DNA of 64,000 bases from Geobacter sp. FeAm09 (GTDB lineage Bacteria > Desulfobacterota > Desulfuromonadia > Geobacterales > Pseudopelobacteraceae), in assembly GCF_008330225.1 (NCBI RefSeq), contig NZ_CP042466.1, positions 2,180,501 through 2,244,500 of the forward strand, given 5' to 3'. A program made the translations under genes and the position numbers. A model generated the notes under the pieces. That model was not told where the DNA came from, did not search any database, and saw only the letters and a program-made list of their open reading frames with translations. Positions 4,553-62,921 of this stretch are shown in pieces (positions within the stretch are counted from its first letter, which is position 1; each line of letters opens with the position of its first letter).

Positions 4553-6178
4553 ATGTCAACCAAACCGTTCGTCTATCAGGAGCCCTTCCCGCTTGCCACG
4601 GATCAGACCCCCTACCGCAAGATCGAGGGGAGCGAAAAGTACGTCGAATTGGCCGAGTTTGCCGGCAAGCAGGTCATCCGGGTCTGTCCCGAGGCGCTCA
4701 CCATCCTGGCCAACGAGTCCATGCGGGACGTTTCGTTCCTGCTGCGCCCCGCGCACAACGAGCAGGTGGCCAAGATCCTCTCCGATCCCGAGGCCTCCCA
4801 GAACGACAAAGGGGTCGCCATGGCGTTCCTGCGCAACGCCGAGATCTCCGCCCAGTTCGAGCTCCCGGTCTGTCAGGACACCGGTACCGCCACGGTCGTC
4901 GCCAAGAAGGGACAGCAGGTCTGGACCGGCGTCAAGGACGAGGAATGGATCGCCAAGGGGGTCTACAAGACCTACACCGAAGAAAACCTGCGCTATTCCC
5001 AGACCGTGCCCCTGGACATGTACAAGGAGACCAACACCGGCACCAATCTGCCGGCCCAGATCGACATTGCGGCCACGGACGGCGATTATTACAAGTTCCT
5101 CTTCATGGCCAAGGGTGGCGGCTCGGCCAACAAGACCATGCTGTTCCAGGAGACCAAGGCCCTCCTGACCCCGGGCAAACTGGAAAAGTTCCTGGTGGAG
5201 AAGATGAAATACCTGGGCACCGCCGCCTGCCCCCCCTACCACATCGCCTTCGTCATCGGCGGCACCAGCGCCGACGCCTGCATGAAGACCGTCAAACTGG
5301 CCACGGCCAAGGAACTGGACGGCCTCCCCACCCAGGGGAACGAGCACGGCCAGGCCTTCCGCGATCTGGAACTGGAGGCGAAACTCCTTGAGGCGGCTCA
5401 GAAGCTGGGCATCGGCGCCCAGTTCGGCGGCAAATACTTCGCCCACGACGTGCGGGTCATCCGCCTCCCGCGCCACGGCGCCTCCTGTCCGGTGGGCATG
5501 GCGGTTTCCTGCTCGGCCGACCGCAACATCAAGGCCAAGATCACCAAGGACGGCCTGTTCGTGGAGGAGATGGACCGCAACCCCGGCCGCCTGATCCCCG
5601 AACAGTACCGGGGCAAGCACAGCCACGGCGTGAAGATCGACCTGAACAAGCCCATGCCGGAGATTCTGGCCGAGTTGACCAAACACCCGGTCTCCACCCC
5701 GCTGCTTTTGACCGGCACCATCGTGGTGGGCCGCGACATCGCCCACGCCAAGTTCAAGGAGATCATGGACAGCGGAAAGCCGCTGCCCGAGTATCTGCTG
5801 AAGCACCCCATCTACTACGCCGGCCCGGCCAAGACCCCGGCGGGCAAGCCCTCCGGCTCCTTCGGACCCACCACCGCCGGCCGCATGGACTCCTACGTGG
5901 ACGAACTGCAGAGCAAGGGAGGCTCCCTGATCATGATCGCCAAGGGGAACCGCAGCCAGCAGGTTACCGACGCCTGCAAGAAATACGGCGGCTTCTATCT
6001 CGGCTCCATCGGCGGCCCGGCCGCGATCCTGGCCGAGGAGAACATCAAGAAGGTGGAGTGCATCGACTTCCCGGAACTGGGGATGGAAGCGGTGTGGAAG
6101 ATCGAGGTAGAGGACTTCCCGGCGTTCATCCTGGTGGACGACAAAGGGAACGACTTCTTCAAACAACTCGGCCTGTAA
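4553..6178 (+). CDS. fumA: Class I fumarate hydratase, [4Fe-4S] type
   Basis: Reversible hydration of fumarate to L-malate in the TCA cycle; oxygen-sensitive iron-sulfur enzyme of the cytoplasm. The 541-residue length fits the fused single-chain FumA/FumB form. Cluster cysteines are recognisable as Cys107 (PVCQDTGTA), Cys226 (GTAACPPYH) and Cys320 (AVSCSADRN), matching the spacing in E. coli FumA with an offset of two. The C-terminal beta domain carries [26 protein letters not shown] lies 9 bp before the ATG. The gene is monocistronic: its own promoter region lies upstream and a strong hairpin lies downstream. Confidence 0.96.
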
Positions 6179-57684: not shown

Positions 57685-58918
57685 TCAGACAGATCGTTTC
57701 AACGGTATTACCTTCGCCACGCTCTTCAACTCTTCAAGATAATCCGCCCATTGCTGCATCATTTTTTTGCGTTCGACAAGGTGAGCCGTGCGGTTGTAAG
57801 CTCTGCCGTTGGGATCTTTCACGGCATGTGCAAGTTGATGCTCGATGAAATCCGGTCGAACCTGCAGGACTTCATCAAGGATCGTCCTGGCCGTTGCTCT
57901 GAATCCGTGACCGGTCATTTCGTCGGAGGTATACCCCATGCGCCGGAGAGCGGCGTTTATGGCGTTGTTGGTCATGGGGCGGAGCGGTGAGCGGTGGCAT
58001 GGGAAAACATATCTGCCGTAGCCGGTCAGTGGGTGAAGATCTTTCAGGGTGGCGATTGCTTGGCGCGATAGAGGGACAATGTGGGGCTGCTTCATTTTCA
58101 TCTTTTCGGCCGGTATGTTCCATTGCTCGTTTTCAAAGTCGATTTCGGCCCATTTCCATTTGCCGGAGTTCTCCAGGACGAACAAAGAGCATGGGTGCCA
58201 GCTTGAGGGCGCACTTGACGTGAAAGGTGCCTTTAAAGCCGTCTATGGCCCGGAGAAGGTCGGCAACTTCTTTCGGGTCGGTAAGGGCGGCATGATGTTT
58301 TTCCCGGACCGGTGGCAATGCCCCCCTTAAATCGGCAGCAGAATCGCGCTCAGCGCGTCCGGTAGCCACGGCATAACGTAGGACCTGCCCGCAGATCGTT
58401 CTAACCCTGTGAGCCGTTTCCAGGGCTCCCCTACTCTCTACCCTTCTCAGTATCGCCAGAATGTCCACAGGCTTGATTTCGGCAACAGGCTTACCGCCGA
58501 GCCAGGGGAACACGTCGCGGGTCAATCTGTCCATGATCGTGGCGGCATGGCCGGGTGACCATTGACCGGAGAATTTGCTATGCCATTCGCGGGCAATTAT
58601 CTCGAAGCTGTTTTCAACCTCAGCGAGCGTAGATGCTTTTTGCGCTTTTTTCTGTTCTCCTGGATCAACACCATTGACCAAAAGCTTCCTAGCTTCATCT
58701 CGACGCTGGCGGGCATCGGCAAGGGACACGGCGGGGTACGCACCAAGAGCCAGCATTTTACGCTTGCCAGCAAAGCGATAATCGAGACGCCACAGCTTTC
58801 CGCCTGTAGGCGTGATCTGTAAGAAGAGGCCTGAACCATCCATAAGCCGGTAGTCACGTTCCTGAGGTTTGGCGTTTTTCACCTGGAGATCAGAGAGCGG
58901 TGCGATCCGTTTCGGCAT
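57685..58918 (-). CDS. int: P4-type tyrosine integrase, frameshifted
   Basis: About 410 residues if one base is removed. N-terminal DUF4102 arm-binding domain (LSDLQVKNAKPQERDYRLMDG), core-binding domain, and the catalytic domain with Arg (FVRPGELR), HGFRAT, EHQLAH and nucleophile Tyr in GRAYNRTAHLVE. The break at 58153-58155 is one extra A (minus strand) between Met-Glu and Trp-Ala, unlike the missing-G/C breaks elsewhere. AAAAAGGAG precedes the ATG. It lies 200 bp from the 3' end of ssrA, a classic target of such integrases. As read, the gene is broken. Confidence 0.88.
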
Positions 58919-59118
58919 GGCCTTTTCTCCTTTTTGGAGGTATCCGGTTTTCGTATGGAGGTATTTCACTTTGAGGATGCTCCATATAACCCCAAAAATA
59001 CCTCCAAAAATGTTGGCCACAAGCATATCAAAGCGAACTTTGCCGGACAACACAAAAAGAAAAGCCCCTGATTTCTCAAGGGCTTTTGGTCTTAGCCGGA
59101 CAATACCGGACTATGTTT

Positions 59119-59145
59119 TGGTGGAGGTGCCGGGAGTCGAACCCG
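59119..59145 (-). other. Probable integrase attachment site (3' end of ssrA)
   Basis: The TTCGACTC loop and CACCTCCACCA end of tmRNA face the integrase gene, so this end is one att junction. I searched by eye for a second copy of this sequence leftward and found none in the window, so the element's other end is unknown or eroded. Confidence 0.5.
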
Positions 59146-59473
59146 GGTCCGAAGAACCTACCATCTGAATTACTACACCGTTAGTCCGTTGCTCGATTTA
59201 ACCGGCCCGGTACGCAAAGGACAAAGCACCGTGCCGGCGGTCCCGTAAGTTTTCAGGTTGCGCTACGGGCGTTGCGCATCCCAATCCGGTAGTGAATGAC
59301 GTCCCCTTCTTACCACCGGCATCTCGGTCGGGGACGCCTGTTAAGCTGCGAGAGCTACAGGAGTGTTATAATTGTCGGCAATTAATGCCGTTGCAGGTTT
59401 ATTAAGGTCGGCCACCTGCCCCGACCCGGTGCAACCCAGATTTTCACTTCCCCGTCGAAACCTTTACACCCCC
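59119..59473 (-). ncRNA. ssrA: Transfer-messenger RNA (tmRNA)
   Basis: About 355 nt. The 5' GGGGGTG (59473-59467) pairs with the 3' CACCTCC before the encoded CCA (59121-59119). The 5' part has GTAAAGGTTTCGACGGGG and the 3' part GGGTTCGACTCCCG (T arm). The tag reading frame at 59379-59341 encodes ADNYNTPVALAA then TAA, ending in the usual Ala-Ala. It rescues stalled ribosomes together with SmpB, whose gene lies 50 bp upstream. Confidence 0.97.
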
Positions 59474-60089: not shown

Positions 60090-60118
60090 TTGACAAACAA
60101 TTTCCTTTTGGATTATAT
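60090..60118 (+). promoter_or_regulatory. Sigma-70 promoter of the M-box operon
   Basis: Perfect TTGACA (60090-60095) and TTATAT (60113-60118) with a 17-bp spacer. Transcription would start around 60125, just before the riboswitch. Confidence 0.85.
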
Positions 60119-60126
60119 GGTTAAAG

Positions 60127-60275
60127 TTCCTCGTTAGCAGAGGCGTTTGCACAAACACAGGCTACTGCCCAAAAATGTCGAAAGACGCCAATGGGTAGAC
60201 CAGGTATTGTCGGCCTAAGGCTTTACCTAAGGTAGCTGGTCATTGACCTACGTTGTGCTCTGCCGAAAGTCAACC
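60127..60275 (+). ncRNA. M-box (ykoK leader) Mg2+ riboswitch
   Basis: The conserved M-box words occur in the right order: CCTCGTTAG (60129-60137) and GAGGC; then GGCTACTGCCC, AAAAATGTCGAAAGACGCC and AATGGGTAGACC; then AAGGTAGCTGG, TGACCTACG and CTCTGCCGAAAGTC. The middle block closely matches the known Bacillus M-box core. The RNA folds on binding several Mg2+ ions and exposes the downstream terminator. It lies directly between a good promoter and the terminator that precedes the mgtE-like gene. Confidence 0.93.
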
Positions 60276-60304
60276 AGTGGGGAAACGGTTACTTTGCGTG
60301 CGCC

Positions 60305-60337
60305 AAAGGCCCTTTCTTCCCTGAAAGGGCCTTTTTT
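60305..60337 (+). terminator. Riboswitch-controlled intrinsic terminator
   Basis: AAAGGCCCTTTC (60305-60316) pairs with GAAAGGGCCTTT (60323-60334), loop TTCCCT, ending in a T run. It lies 18 bp before the mgtE-like ATG, so it must be read through for expression. It is the expected M-box expression platform: terminator formed at high Mg2+. Confidence 0.9.
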
Positions 60338-60354
60338 ATTTCGGGGTGGCCATT

Positions 60355-61611
60355 ATGAACACGGAATACAGCGAAATATACCTGAGTGCCGTCATCGGCC
60401 GGTCGGTGATCAACAGCAGGGGCGAAGAGCTCGGGCTTCTCCGCGACCTGATCATGGTGCCGGGCGAGGTCTTCCCCGAGGTGTCGCACATCGTGATCAA
60501 GGGACGCAAGGGCAAGATGCTGCTCCCCTGGAGCGAGGTATCGCTGTTTACCCACGTGGTCATATCCTCCGCCGGCATCGCCCCCGGCCTGCGCCCCTAC
60601 GAGTACCGCGAGGCGGAGATCCTGGTGCGGCGCGACCTTTTGGACAAGCAGATCGTGGACGTGGACGGGGCCAAGGTGGTGCGCGTCAACGACATCAAGC
60701 TGGGCAAGCTCCACGACAAGCTGTGCATATTCTCCGTCGATATCGGCTTCCGCGGCCTCCTGCGCCGCCTGGGCTACGAACGGTTCGGCGAGAACGTGGC
60801 GCGGCTGATCAAGAAGGACATCCCCAACGCCGAGATCAGCTGGGAGTATGTCCAGCCGCTGGAGCCCCATTCGTCCAAGCTGGCCCTCAATATCGCCCGC
60901 AACCAGATGAACGAGATCCATCCGGCCGACCTGGCGGACATCATCGAGCAGATCCCGATCCAGAGCATCAAGACCGTGCTCGAAAGCATCGACCCGGAAA
61001 CCACCGGCGATACGCTCTACGAACTGGAACCGGAGATGCGCAGCGTGGTCATCAGCCAGATGGATGCCGAGCACGCCTCGGACATCCTGGAAGAGATGTC
61101 CCCGGACGATGCGGCCGACGTCCTCTCCGACCTGTCGGAAGAGACGGCCCAGCAATTGCTGGGGATGATGGACGACGAGGAGAAGGAAGAGATCGAGGAA
61201 CTGCTGGAGCACGAGGAAGACACGGCCGGCGGCTTCATGACCAGCGAATTCCTCACCCTGCCCCTGAACCACACGGTGGGCGCCGCCATCGCCGAGGTGC
61301 GCCGGCTCGCGGGGGAGATCGAAAACGTCAGCTATGCCTATCTCCTGGATGACGCCGAACATCTGGAGGGGGTGCTCAGCCTCCAGGATTTGCTCGCCTC
61401 CAAGGACGATGAACTCGTCGTGGATGTGATGGAAGACAACATCCGTAGCGTGAATGTGGGCGACGCCCCGGAGGAGATCCTGGAAACCCTCACCCGGTAC
61501 GACCTGACCGCGGTAGCGGTATTGGACGAGGAACAGCGCATGGTGGGCATCGTCACCGTTGACGACGTCCTGGCCCACTATCTGCCGCGCCTGGTGAAGA
61601 AGAGAGGATAG
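60355..61611 (+). CDS. Headless MgtE-like Mg2+ sensor: PRC-barrel + MgtE_N + CBS pair, no membrane domain
   Basis: 418 residues, soluble. Residues 1-165 contain one or two PRC-barrel-like units (IGRSVINSRGEELGLLRDLIM; VDGAKVVRVNDIKLGKLHD). Residues about 190-285 form an MgtE_N superhelix with repeats such as HPADLADIIEQIP, ASDILEEMSPDDAADVLSDL. Residues 290-410 are a CBS pair, including DTAGGFMTSEFLTL, GVLSLQDLLAS and GIVTVDDVLAHY. MgtE normally continues into five membrane helices; here the protein stops (KKRG) and an NRAMP-like transporter gene begins 11 bp later. Likely a Mg2+-sensing regulator acting in trans. The start follows GGGG; a GTG at 60346 is possible. Confidence 0.93.
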   Translation: MNTEYSEIYLSAVIGRSVINSRGEELGLLRDLIMVPGEVFPEVSHIVIKGRKGKMLLPWSEVSLFTHVVISSAGIAPGLRPYEYREAEILVRRDLLDKQIVDVDGAKVVRVNDIKLGKLHDKLCIFSVDIGFRGLLRRLGYERFGENVARLIKKDIPNAEISWEYVQPLEPHSSKLALNIARNQMNEIHPADLADIIEQIPIQSIKTVLESIDPETTGDTLYELEPEMRSVVISQMDAEHASDILEEMSPDDAADVLSDLSEETAQQLLGMMDDEEKEEIEELLEHEEDTAGGFMTSEFLTLPLNHTVGAAIAEVRRLAGEIENVSYAYLLDDAEHLEGVLSLQDLLASKDDELVVDVMEDNIRSVNVGDAPEEILETLTRYDLTAVAVLDEEQRMVGIVTVDDVLAHYLPRLVKKRG

Positions 61612-61622
61612 GAAGAAACGCC

Positions 61623-62921
61623 ATGTTCACCGGTATATCGCTGTTCAAATTCCTCAAGCCGCTCAAGAGCGTGACCCCCCGGAACATCATGCTGTTCCTG
61701 GCCATCCTCGGTCCCGGCATCATCACCGCCAATGTGGACAACGACGCCGGCGGCATCACGACCTATTCCCTGGCCGGGGCCAACTACGGCAACGACCTGC
61801 TCTGGACCATGCTCCCCACGACCATCGCCCTGGTGGTGGTCCAGGAGATGTGCGCCCGCATGGGCGCCGTGACCGGCAAGGGGCTCGCCGACCTGATCCG
61901 CGAGTCGTTCGGCGTCAAGGTCACCTTCTACGTGATGATCGCCCTGCTTTTGACCAACATGGGCAACTCCATCTCCGAATTTGCCGGCATCGCCGCCAGC
62001 CTCGAGATCTTCGGCATCAGCAAGTACCTGTCGGTCCCCATCAGCGCCGTGGTGGTCTGGCTGTTGATCGTCAAGGGGTCGTACAAGACCGTGGAGAAGG
62101 TGTTCCTGGTGGCCTGCATGGTCTATGTCGCCTACCCCATCGCCGCCGTCATGGCCGGCCCCAAATGGGACGTCATCATCAAGGCCAGCGTCACCCCCAC
62201 GTTCCGCTCCGACAGCGCCTTCACCATGACCCTGATCGGCCTGGTGGGCACCACCATCGCCCCCTGGATGCAGTTCTACCAGCAATCGGCCGTGGTGGAG
62301 AAGGGGATCACCGCGAAACAGTATGCCTTTACGCGGCTGGACGTCATCTTCGGCTGCATCATGGCCATCGTGGTCGCCTTTTTCATCGTGGTGGCCTGCG
62401 CCGCCACCATCAATGTCCAGGGGCTCAAGGTGGAGACCGCCGCCGACGCGGCCATGGCGCTCAAGCCGCTGGTGGGCCGCCACGCATCCACCCTGTTCGC
62501 CTTTGGCCTCTTCAATGCGTCCCTGTTCGCCGCCTGCATCCTGCCGCTCTCCACGGCCTTCTACATCTGCGAGGGCATGGGGTGGGAGTCGGGGGTGGAC
62601 AAGGATTTCGAGCGGGCGCCCCAGTTTTTCTGGCTCTTCACCGTGATCATCGTCATCAGCGCCGGCCTGATCCTGGCCCCCAACGCCCCGCTGCTCAAGA
62701 TCATGTTCATCTCCCAGGTGGTCAACGGCGCCATGCTGCCGTTCATCCTGATCTTCATGCAACTGCTGGTGAACGACCGCAAGCTCATGGGCAGTTTCGT
62801 CAACGGTCCCGTCTTCAACATCATCGCCTGGCTGACGGTGGCGATCATGATCGTCATGACCATCGTCATGACCCTGGACATGATCCTCCCCGGCGCGCTC
62901 AAGGGGCTTGTGACCTTTTAG
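61623..62921 (+). CDS. NRAMP-related Mg2+ transporter (NRMT-like)
   Basis: 432 residues, about 11 membrane helices of the NRAMP/SLC11 fold. In helix 1 the classical DPGN is DAGG (41-44, in NVDNDAGGITTY). In helix 6 the metal-selective Met of MPHN is Ala213 (TTIAPWMQFYQQS). Loss of the helix 1 Asn and helix 6 Met is known for NRAMP-related magnesium transporters, while Mn/Fe transporters keep them. With the M-box upstream this favours Mg2+ import. It is 11 bp behind the MgtE_N/CBS gene and in the same operon. GGAAGAAACGCC precedes the ATG. Confidence 0.9.
   Translation: MFTGISLFKFLKPLKSVTPRNIMLFLAILGPGIITANVDNDAGGITTYSLAGANYGNDLLWTMLPTTIALVVVQEMCARMGAVTGKGLADLIRESFGVKVTFYVMIALLLTNMGNSISEFAGIAASLEIFGISKYLSVPISAVVVWLLIVKGSYKTVEKVFLVACMVYVAYPIAAVMAGPKWDVIIKASVTPTFRSDSAFTMTLIGLVGTTIAPWMQFYQQSAVVEKGITAKQYAFTRLDVIFGCIMAIVVAFFIVVACAATINVQGLKVETAADAAMALKPLVGRHASTLFAFGLFNASLFAACILPLSTAFYICEGMGWESGVDKDFERAPQFFWLFTVIIVISAGLILAPNAPLLKIMFISQVVNGAMLPFILIFMQLLVNDRKLMGSFVNGPVFNIIAWLTVAIMIVMTIVMTLDMILPGALKGLVTF

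What the first reader, a model, noticed from the sequence alone, without database searches (positions are those of the whole stretch)
60090..62921. M-box-controlled operon pairing a soluble MgtE sensor with an NRAMP-related transporter
A strong promoter, a clear M-box Mg2+ riboswitch and its terminator precede two genes. The first encodes the MgtE_N and CBS gating domains plus PRC-barrel units but none of the MgtE membrane helices. The second is an NRAMP-fold transporter whose metal-site residues (DAGG in helix 1, Ala213 in helix 6) are those of Mg2+-selective members. In ordinary MgtE the sensor gates its own pore. Here the sensor seems to have been split off and re-used with an unrelated transporter, a two-component Mg2+ gate that I do not know as described.
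Basis: partly seen in the sequence, partly recalled or inferred. Interest (0 to 1): 0.85.

Follow-up and report, generated by a model that had tools for sequence, protein, structure and literature searches.

The report
Magnesium switch, sensor and transporter operon
A magnesium-sensing RNA switch controls two neighbouring bacterial genes, a magnesium importer and a free-standing copy of the sensor part of a different magnesium channel; the pairing was described in 2014, but this survey shows the two proteins nearly always occurring together even when their genes lie apart, which points to a sensor that controls a separate transporter.

Summary
The anatomy is confirmed. An M-box (RF00380, 146.7 bits, 60123-60288) and a 12-bp terminator precede a soluble protein (PRC-barrel, MgtE_N, CBS; no membrane helix; 60355-61611) and an NRAMP-related transporter (61623-62921) with the DxxG/TxxA site of Mg2+-transporting NRMTs. 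The claim that this pairing is undescribed is wrong: Shin et al. 2014 (PMC4072509, passages read) reported M-box operons joining an MgtE-cytosolic-domain homologue to NrmT, in Clostridia and Deltaproteobacteria, and proposed feedback regulation. This locus, in a Geobacteraceae genome, is a new member of that kind.

New here: in 395 genomes of the phylum, sensor and NRMT occur together in 94, NRMT alone in 2, sensor alone in 1, although unlinked in 13. MgtE membrane domains occur in 12 of 96 NRMT genomes against 214 of 299 others, uncorrected for kinship. Tested residues of three cytosolic Mg2+ sites of MgtE are kept in 123 of 123 sensors of the window's type. The most conserved stretch lies in the second PRC-like unit. 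Best reading: a detached MgtE gate, probably docked through PRC barrels, limits Mg2+ uptake by an unrelated transporter. Contact and gating are untested.

The parts
60090..60119 (+). promoter-like stretch, TTGACA - 18 nt - TATATG
   Evidence: read directly from the sequence; the consensus scan found no site under its rule, so weak
60123..60288 (+). M-box Mg2+ riboswitch aptamer
   Evidence: RF00380, 146.7 bits, gathering score 44, model 1-169 of 169
60305..60334 (+). intrinsic terminator hairpin followed by a U-rich tract
   Evidence: fold z -3.34
60355..61611 (+). gene for a soluble Mg2+ sensor homologue, 418 aa from ATG (GTG at 60346 possible)
   Evidence: a match in 59 of 97 genomes, the window's own included
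60373..60564 (+). first PRC-barrel unit (residues 7-70)
   Evidence: PF05239, 29.8 bits, cut-off 21.2; fold
60619..60774 (+). second PRC-like unit (residues 89-140), most conserved part of the sensor; peak at residues 94-113 (60634-60693)
   Evidence: conservation; tandem-PRC fold match to CdpB1/CdpB2; no Pfam hit alone
60916..61221 (+). MgtE_N domain (residues 188-289) with Mg-site residues D219, D251, D255
   Evidence: PF03448, 91.7 bits; site residues
61252..61578 (+). CBS pair (residues 300-408) with Mg-site residues D383, D404
61623..62921 (+). NRMT-type NRAMP-related Mg2+ transporter, 432 aa
   Evidence: PF01566 E 1e-101; EleNRMT nearest solved chain; tree
61743..61754 (+). helix 1 metal site D41-A-G-G44
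   Evidence: alignment to EleNRMT D55/G58
62250..62261 (+). helix 6 metal site T210-T-I-A213
   Evidence: alignment to EleNRMT T224

Best explanation
It is an M-box-controlled Mg2+ uptake operon of the NrmT kind. When cytoplasmic Mg2+ is low, the aptamer is loose, the terminator does not form and both genes are made (established for this riboswitch class; inferred here). The NRAMP-related protein imports Mg2+. The first protein is the cytosolic gate of an MgtE channel without its channel: it keeps residues of the Mg2+ sites between N domain and CBS pair, so it should still close up when cytoplasmic Mg2+ is high. It most likely docks on the cytoplasmic face of the transporter through its PRC barrels and slows uptake when Mg2+ is plentiful. 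Shown here: anatomy, family of both proteins, near-obligate co-occurrence, kept Mg2+-site residues, PRC conservation peak. Inferred: Mg2+ transport, Mg2+ binding by the sensor, contact with the transporter, and inhibition as the sign of the effect.
For: M-box and terminator. NRMT site and tree position. Sensor without TM. Sensor within 3 kb of an NRAMP in 69 of 70 sensor rows of 97 genomes, the one miss at a contig end, and an NRAMP in 75 of the 80 loci kept from a wide scan. In 395 phylum genomes, 94 have both, 2 NRMT only, 1 sensor only, 298 neither; sensor first 60, transporter first 8, convergent 13, unlinked 13, alone 1. Four of the unlinked pairs were fetched and lie inside contigs. The MgtE membrane domain is in 12 of 96 NRMT genomes and 214 of 299 others, as if the pair replaced MgtE. 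Residues matching T. thermophilus MgtE D91, D247 (Mg4) and D95 (Mg6) are kept in 123 of 123 type-1 sensors, and E59 (Mg7) as E or D in 123 of 123 (sites from PMC5882242, passages). The sensor fold's best solved matches are MgtE cytosolic domains (Z about 20). The best matches of the N-terminal part are PRC-barrel proteins: the four rows with E <= 0.001 are all CdpB1/CdpB2, and weaker rows include the reaction-centre H subunit, which caps a membrane complex (that role is recalled).
Against: No contact or gating was shown by any search. Shin et al. found transport by the C. acetobutylicum genes without the partner, and no gain when the A. capsulatum pair was co-expressed; that transporter looked like a Mn2+ carrier. 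The Mg5 residue D226 is N in 79 of 123 type-1 sensors, its partner D250 lay beyond the aligned segment and was not tested, and the ATP-site F227 is L in 122 of 123, so the switch cannot be identical to MgtE's. Type-2 sensors lost D91 (6 of 6) and D226 (6 of 6) yet stay paired. Four of 80 sensor loci have no NRAMP in the locus and do not stop at a contig end; one of those genomes (L152) showed only an MntH-like NRAMP. The exclusion of MgtE is not corrected for kinship: in the 97 relatives MgtE was found in only 2 (one over the cut-off), although 38 of the 97 have no sensor match. No fusion of sensor and transporter was found in what was examined.
Confidence: 0.6

Rival explanations
1. The sensor is a Mg2+ chaperone or buffer that takes Mg2+ from the importer and does not gate it.
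For: Shin et al. name chaperone activity as an alternative; acidic Mg-site residues are kept.
Against: Intracellular Mg2+ is kept at about 0.5-2 mM (abstract start), so a chaperone has little purpose; the residues kept are those that act between N domain and CBS pair in MgtE, which fits a switch.
Confidence: 0.1
2. The sensor acts elsewhere, for example on ribosome assembly or another target through its PRC barrels, as a general Mg2+-status protein that is merely co-regulated with the importer.
For: PRC barrels also occur in RimM, which appears among the weaker fold matches; sensors are unlinked from NRMT in 13 of 95 phylum rows.
Against: Co-occurrence with NRMT is nearly one to one (94 of 97 genomes that have either) even where unlinked; none of the 55 MgtE-type rows listed reaches into the PRC part.
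Confidence: 0.12
3. The sensor is an activator or stabiliser needed for assembly of the transporter, not an inhibitor.
For: Near-obligate pairing; second PRC unit more conserved than the Mg2+-binding part.
Against: C. acetobutylicum transporters worked without the partner, and A. capsulatum co-expression gave no gain.
Confidence: 0.15
4. The operon handles Mn2+ or another divalent metal, with the riboswitch kept from an older Mg2+ role.
For: A. capsulatum NrmT fully rescued a Mn2+ defect but only partly a Mg2+ defect although it has the MgtE-like partner; EleNRMT carries both Mg2+ and Mn2+ (abstract passage).
Against: Shin et al. suggest the M-box as a mark of Mg2+ specificity, and the A. capsulatum pair lacks it; site DxxG-TxxA and Trp215 in place of the proton-path His; a separate MntH-like gene is in the same genome.
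Confidence: 0.08

Closest known systems
M-box - MgtE-cytosolic-domain gene - NrmT operons of Shin et al. 2014 (PMC4072509)
   Same: Same riboswitch, same pair of genes, transporter of the same family, also reported for Deltaproteobacteria; feedback regulation proposed there
   Different: Geobacter is not named in the main text (term search; Fig. S5 not seen). PRC barrels, co-occurrence without linkage, the MgtE pattern and the reversed-order type 2 are not in the passages seen
EleNRMT (7qia), Mg2+/Mn2+ transporter, PMC8806188
   Same: Nearest solved chain, E 1.3e-123; DxxG-TxxA site, E119 and Q365 equivalents, Trp for His
   Different: The branch that joins the two is weak (83/61); whether its source organism has a sensor gene was not tested
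MgtE Mg2+ channel (T. thermophilus 2yvx, 2zy9)
   Same: MgtE_N plus CBS pair; tested Mg4, Mg6 and Mg7 residues kept
   Different: No membrane domain; ends soon after CBS2 where the plug helix would be; extra N-terminal PRC part
Tandem PRC-barrel proteins CdpB1/CdpB2 (8qzo) and, more weakly, reaction-centre H subunit
   Same: Fold of the N-terminal part, residues about 7-162
   Different: No MgtE or CBS part; other functions (recalled)

Membership tests
M-box riboswitch (RF00380) | covariance match over the gathering score, whole aptamer | tested here: met
   146.7 bits against 44
M-box riboswitch (RF00380) | intrinsic terminator between aptamer and first gene | tested here: met
   60305-60334
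M-box riboswitch (RF00380) | Mg2+-dependent termination | not testable with these tools
   needs transcription or reporter assays
NRMT / NrmT (NRAMP-related Mg2+ transporter) | DxxG in helix 1 and TxxA/T in helix 6 | tested here: met
   D41, G44, T210, A213; same pattern in 120 of 120 NRMT rows with letters at all four sites (window counted twice; 5 incomplete rows set aside); 5 MntH-type rows read D, N, A, M and 3 long NRAMPs (L062-L064) read D, A, A, S
NRMT / NrmT (NRAMP-related Mg2+ transporter) | separate from Mn/Fe NRAMPs in a tree | tested here: met
   split from the 8 MntH-type rows 100/100; join with EleNRMT only 83/61; long branches flagged
NRMT / NrmT (NRAMP-related Mg2+ transporter) | transports Mg2+ | not testable with these tools
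   needs transport assays
MgtE transporter (TIGR00400) | MgtE_N and CBS cytosolic domains | tested here: met
MgtE transporter (TIGR00400) | membrane domain PF01769 | tested here: not met
   no PF01769 match in the genome; no hydrophobic segment in the protein; protein ends soon after CBS2
PRC-barrel | first unit matches PF05239 | tested here: met
   29.8 bits, cut-off 21.2
PRC-barrel | second unit is also a PRC barrel | tested here: inconclusive
   tandem model matches CdpB1/CdpB2 over 134-139 columns, TM about 0.5; two PRC stretches in L136 and L172 at E up to 1; no Pfam hit for the window's unit alone; profile comparison of the two units probability 41

The most novel reading that the evidence does not exclude
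A true two-protein gated transporter: a diffusible MgtE-derived Mg2+ sensor that docks by tandem PRC barrels onto an unrelated LeuT-fold Mg2+ carrier and shuts it. The partnership survives gene separation, reversed order and absence of the riboswitch, and tends to stand where MgtE is missing. The same order also holds M-box-linked CorA proteins with an MgtE_N-like N-terminus (below the Pfam cut-off), which would make the MgtE gate a portable module used by several transporter folds.
Probability: 0.5. Interest if true: 0.7.

Novelty: new member of a known kind. Interest (0 to 1): 0.42.

Why it matters
Shin et al. left the function of the MgtE-like partner of NrmT transporters open in 2014, and the passages seen of two later papers on this family do not take it up. 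Near-obligate co-occurrence without linkage, kept Mg2+-site residues and a conserved PRC unit turn that into a direct test: does the sensor bind and close the transporter? If so, a channel gate has been moved, as a separate subunit, onto a carrier of another fold.

Tried and rejected
Fusion lead: three NRAMPs without a sensor nearby (L062-L064) have an N-terminal domain of about 170 residues, first thought to be PRC-like and so a fusion clue. Pfam found no family in that part, profile comparison gave probabilities of 2.7 and 0.4, and their metal site is not NRMT-like. Dropped.

Long open frames at L167 and L174 looked like fusions. In L167 a neighbouring gene lies in the same frame; L174 holds two tandem NRAMPs and a run of masked bases. 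No sensor-transporter fusion was seen among the loci examined.

Distance correlation of paired sensors and transporters (r 0.87, 115 pairs) was set aside, as shared ancestry alone gives this. No residue co-evolution was run: too few diverse pairs (sensor effective number about 55).

M-box at unlinked genes: none at L170, L171, L204 or L205, so control of those unlinked genes by an M-box is not supported.

Frame error after 61611: not supported. Papers: searches. Those joining MgtE with PRC-barrel and Nramp, MgtE_N with Nramp and PRC-barrel with CBS domain and magnesium transporter listed no paper. The library holds only part of the literature, so this is no proof of absence from print. Passages only were read, of PMC4072509, PMC8806188, PMC9606685, PMC5529423 and PMC5882242.

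A complex of sensor and transporter could not be predicted: the tool folds single chains.
Full report
What is there. The window holds, on the + strand, an M-box aptamer at 60123-60288 (RF00380, 146.7 bits, whole model), a 12-bp terminator at 60305-60334, a 418-residue soluble protein at 60355-61611 and a 432-residue NRAMP-family protein at 61623-62921.

The first protein. Pfam gives PRC (7-70), MgtE_N (188-289) and CBS (356-408). The NCBI mgtE model matches only over its cytosolic part and stays below the cut-off. No segment is hydrophobic enough to cross a membrane, the 11 bases between stop and next start leave no room for lost helices, and full-length type-1 relatives differ from it by only a few residues in length. 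A predicted model from 43 sequences (mean pLDDT 79.9, pTM 0.43) has two beta-rich units, the MgtE superhelix and a CBS pair. Its best solved matches are MgtE cytosolic domains: the eight MgtE rows at the top have Z 18.5 to 20.3 with rmsd about 10 A over 223-237 residues, so the arrangement of the domains differs or is unsure. The N-terminal part folded alone (38 sequences, pLDDT 84.5, pTM 0.81) has four Foldseek matches with E <= 0.001, all CdpB1/CdpB2; weaker rows are MTH1859, RimM and reaction-centre H subunits. These are PRC-barrel proteins (for the last two, by recall).

Mg2+ sites. With T. thermophilus MgtE numbering checked on I28, I84, I190 and I242 and site residues from PMC5882242 (passages), 129 different sensor sequences were compared (near-duplicates of one genome seen through two collections may remain). 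In 123 type-1 sensors D91, D95 and D247 are unchanged in all, and E59 is E (86) or D (37). D226 is N in 79, D in 40, K in 3, R in 1; the window has D. D250, E258 and D259 lie beyond the aligned segment; the sensors end soon after it, so the plug-helix sites cannot be present in the MgtE way. The ATP-site F227 is L in 122, and R187 is K (60), R (57), Q (5) or H (1). Six type-2 sensors have A or G for D91 and R or G for D226. The best conserved 20-residue stretch of the sensor is 94-113, in the second PRC-like unit (mean 3.92 bits; region means PRC2 3.31, MgtE_N 3.01, CBS 2.76 and 2.72, PRC1 2.37).

The transporter. The nearest solved chain is EleNRMT, E 1.3e-123. Residues D41, G44, T210, A213, E119, Q365 and W215 match the NRMT description in PMC8806188 (passages). 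A tree of 39 rows splits the 8 MntH-type rows, E. coli MntH and this genome's own included, from the other 31 with 100/100 support; the fork that holds EleNRMT with the window's group has only 83/61, and long branches are flagged. The genome also has one CorA match and no MgtE membrane domain.

Neighbours in other genomes. In 97 genomes (own and relatives) the sensor search gave 70 rows in 59 genomes. Of these rows (one gene split in two and one short fragment included), 69 have an NRAMP within 3 kb; the exception ends at a contig end. Order M-box-sensor-transporter: 43 rows; sensor-transporter with no M-box found: 19; M-box-transporter-sensor: 7, a second type about 33% identical to the window's sensor. 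Sixteen of the 19 M-box-less loci were rescanned and still had none; several are cut short by contig or locus ends. A wide scan kept the best 80 of at least 454 loci; the record titles name Geobacter and other Deltaproteobacteria, Nitrospirae, Chloroflexi, Armatimonadota and Bacillota among others. 75 have an NRAMP in the locus, 72 downstream on the same strand and 3 convergent. Of the 5 without, one is at a contig end; three of the other four genomes have an NRMT elsewhere (one a fragment at a contig end), and the fourth showed only an MntH-like protein. Of 18 loci scanned for RNA families that lie, by title, outside the window's order, one had an M-box (L176).

Co-occurrence. Over 395 genomes of the phylum at least 80% complete, NRMT (E <= 1e-45) was found in 96 and a PRC-bearing sensor (a listed row whose match starts in the PRC part) in 95; both in 94, NRMT only in 2, sensor only in 1, neither in 298. 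Sensor rows: 60 sensor-first, 8 transporter-first, 13 convergent, 13 unlinked, 1 alone. Four unlinked pairs were fetched and lie inside contigs, with unrelated-looking neighbours in those viewed; some other unlinked pairs touch contig ends (G269, G279, G293). The NRMT genomes carry 29 different family labels in the table (counted by eye). The MgtE membrane domain is in 12 of 96 NRMT genomes and 214 of 299 others, Fisher p 2e-25. These tests treat genomes as independent, which they are not: in the window's own order MgtE was found in 2 of 97 genomes (one over the cut-off) with or without the pair. The row list was cut at 150 rows, so weak sensors may be missed; of the 150, 95 are sensors and none of the 55 MgtE-type rows reaches into the PRC part.

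What is known. Shin et al. 2014 (PMC4072509; passages read) found M-boxes upstream of Nramp-related genes mostly in Clostridia and Deltaproteobacteria. Ca_c0685 of C. acetobutylicum fully rescued a Mg2+-transport-deficient strain and Ca_c3329 only at low millimolar Mg2+. The authors reported that most group members have a neighbouring gene homologous to the MgtE N-terminal cytoplasmic domain, and proposed feedback regulation or chaperoning. The partner was not required for transport; the A. capsulatum pair behaved as a Mn2+ system and co-expression did not help. So the finding's central novelty claim fails, and the locus is a new member of a known kind. Of later papers, PMC9606685 does not mention MgtE in its main text, and the five MgtE passages of PMC8806188 concern the channel or references.

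Mechanism. The near one-to-one pairing that survives separation, order changes and absence of the riboswitch argues that the two proteins work together and are not merely co-transcribed. Kept Mg2+-site residues argue for a Mg2+-driven shape change. Without the plug helix it cannot close a pore in the MgtE way; the conserved PRC unit is the likeliest contact surface, by analogy with the reaction-centre H subunit (recalled). Inhibition at high Mg2+ is the likeliest sign, because in MgtE the same domains close the channel (abstract start of PMC8104411) and because the partner is dispensable for transport. None of these last steps was tested.

Noticed in passing
L076 M-box 4686-4853 (-) with ORFs 4323-1258; L223; L227: In three genomes of the order, from three different family labels, an M-box stands upstream of an ABC transporter: in L076 a permease of about 580 residues with two BPD_transp_1 stretches and an ATPase with AAA_assoc_C; L223 and L227 have genes of like size and similar starts, not scanned by Pfam. 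A possible Mg2+-responsive ABC importer.
   Followed up: partly
L073 1956-3269, L074 1566-2846, L226 1722-3005: M-box-linked CorA of about 430 residues with an MgtE_N-like stretch before the CorA domain (20.8 and 18 bits in L073 and L074, below the 25.9 cut-off; profile comparison of three sequences probability 72). The MgtE gate may be grafted onto CorA.
   Followed up: partly
L075, L222, L225, L228: M-box upstream of what looks like a P-type ATPase (L075 matches the Mg2+-translocating model; the others judged by their starts), each followed by a similar gene of about 260 residues.
   Followed up: no
L066-L069, L077-L079: A second, reversed system (M-box, transporter, sensor) about 33% identical to the window's, also in two genomes of the window's own genus; its sensor lost two Mg2+-site residues.
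   Followed up: partly
L174, L177, L179: Chloroflexi-titled loci with one sensor followed by two tandem NRAMPs.
   Followed up: no
L129, L133, L137 and relatives: Some Nitrospirae sensor-linked transporters keep DxxG-TxxT but change the helix 3 Glu to Asn and the helix 10 Gln to Ser or Ala, a possible change of substrate.
   Followed up: no
window 57685-59473: A tmRNA gene (59119-59473, minus) beside what looks, by recall, like a phage-type integrase split over two frames (58133-59053 and 57685-58185).
   Followed up: no
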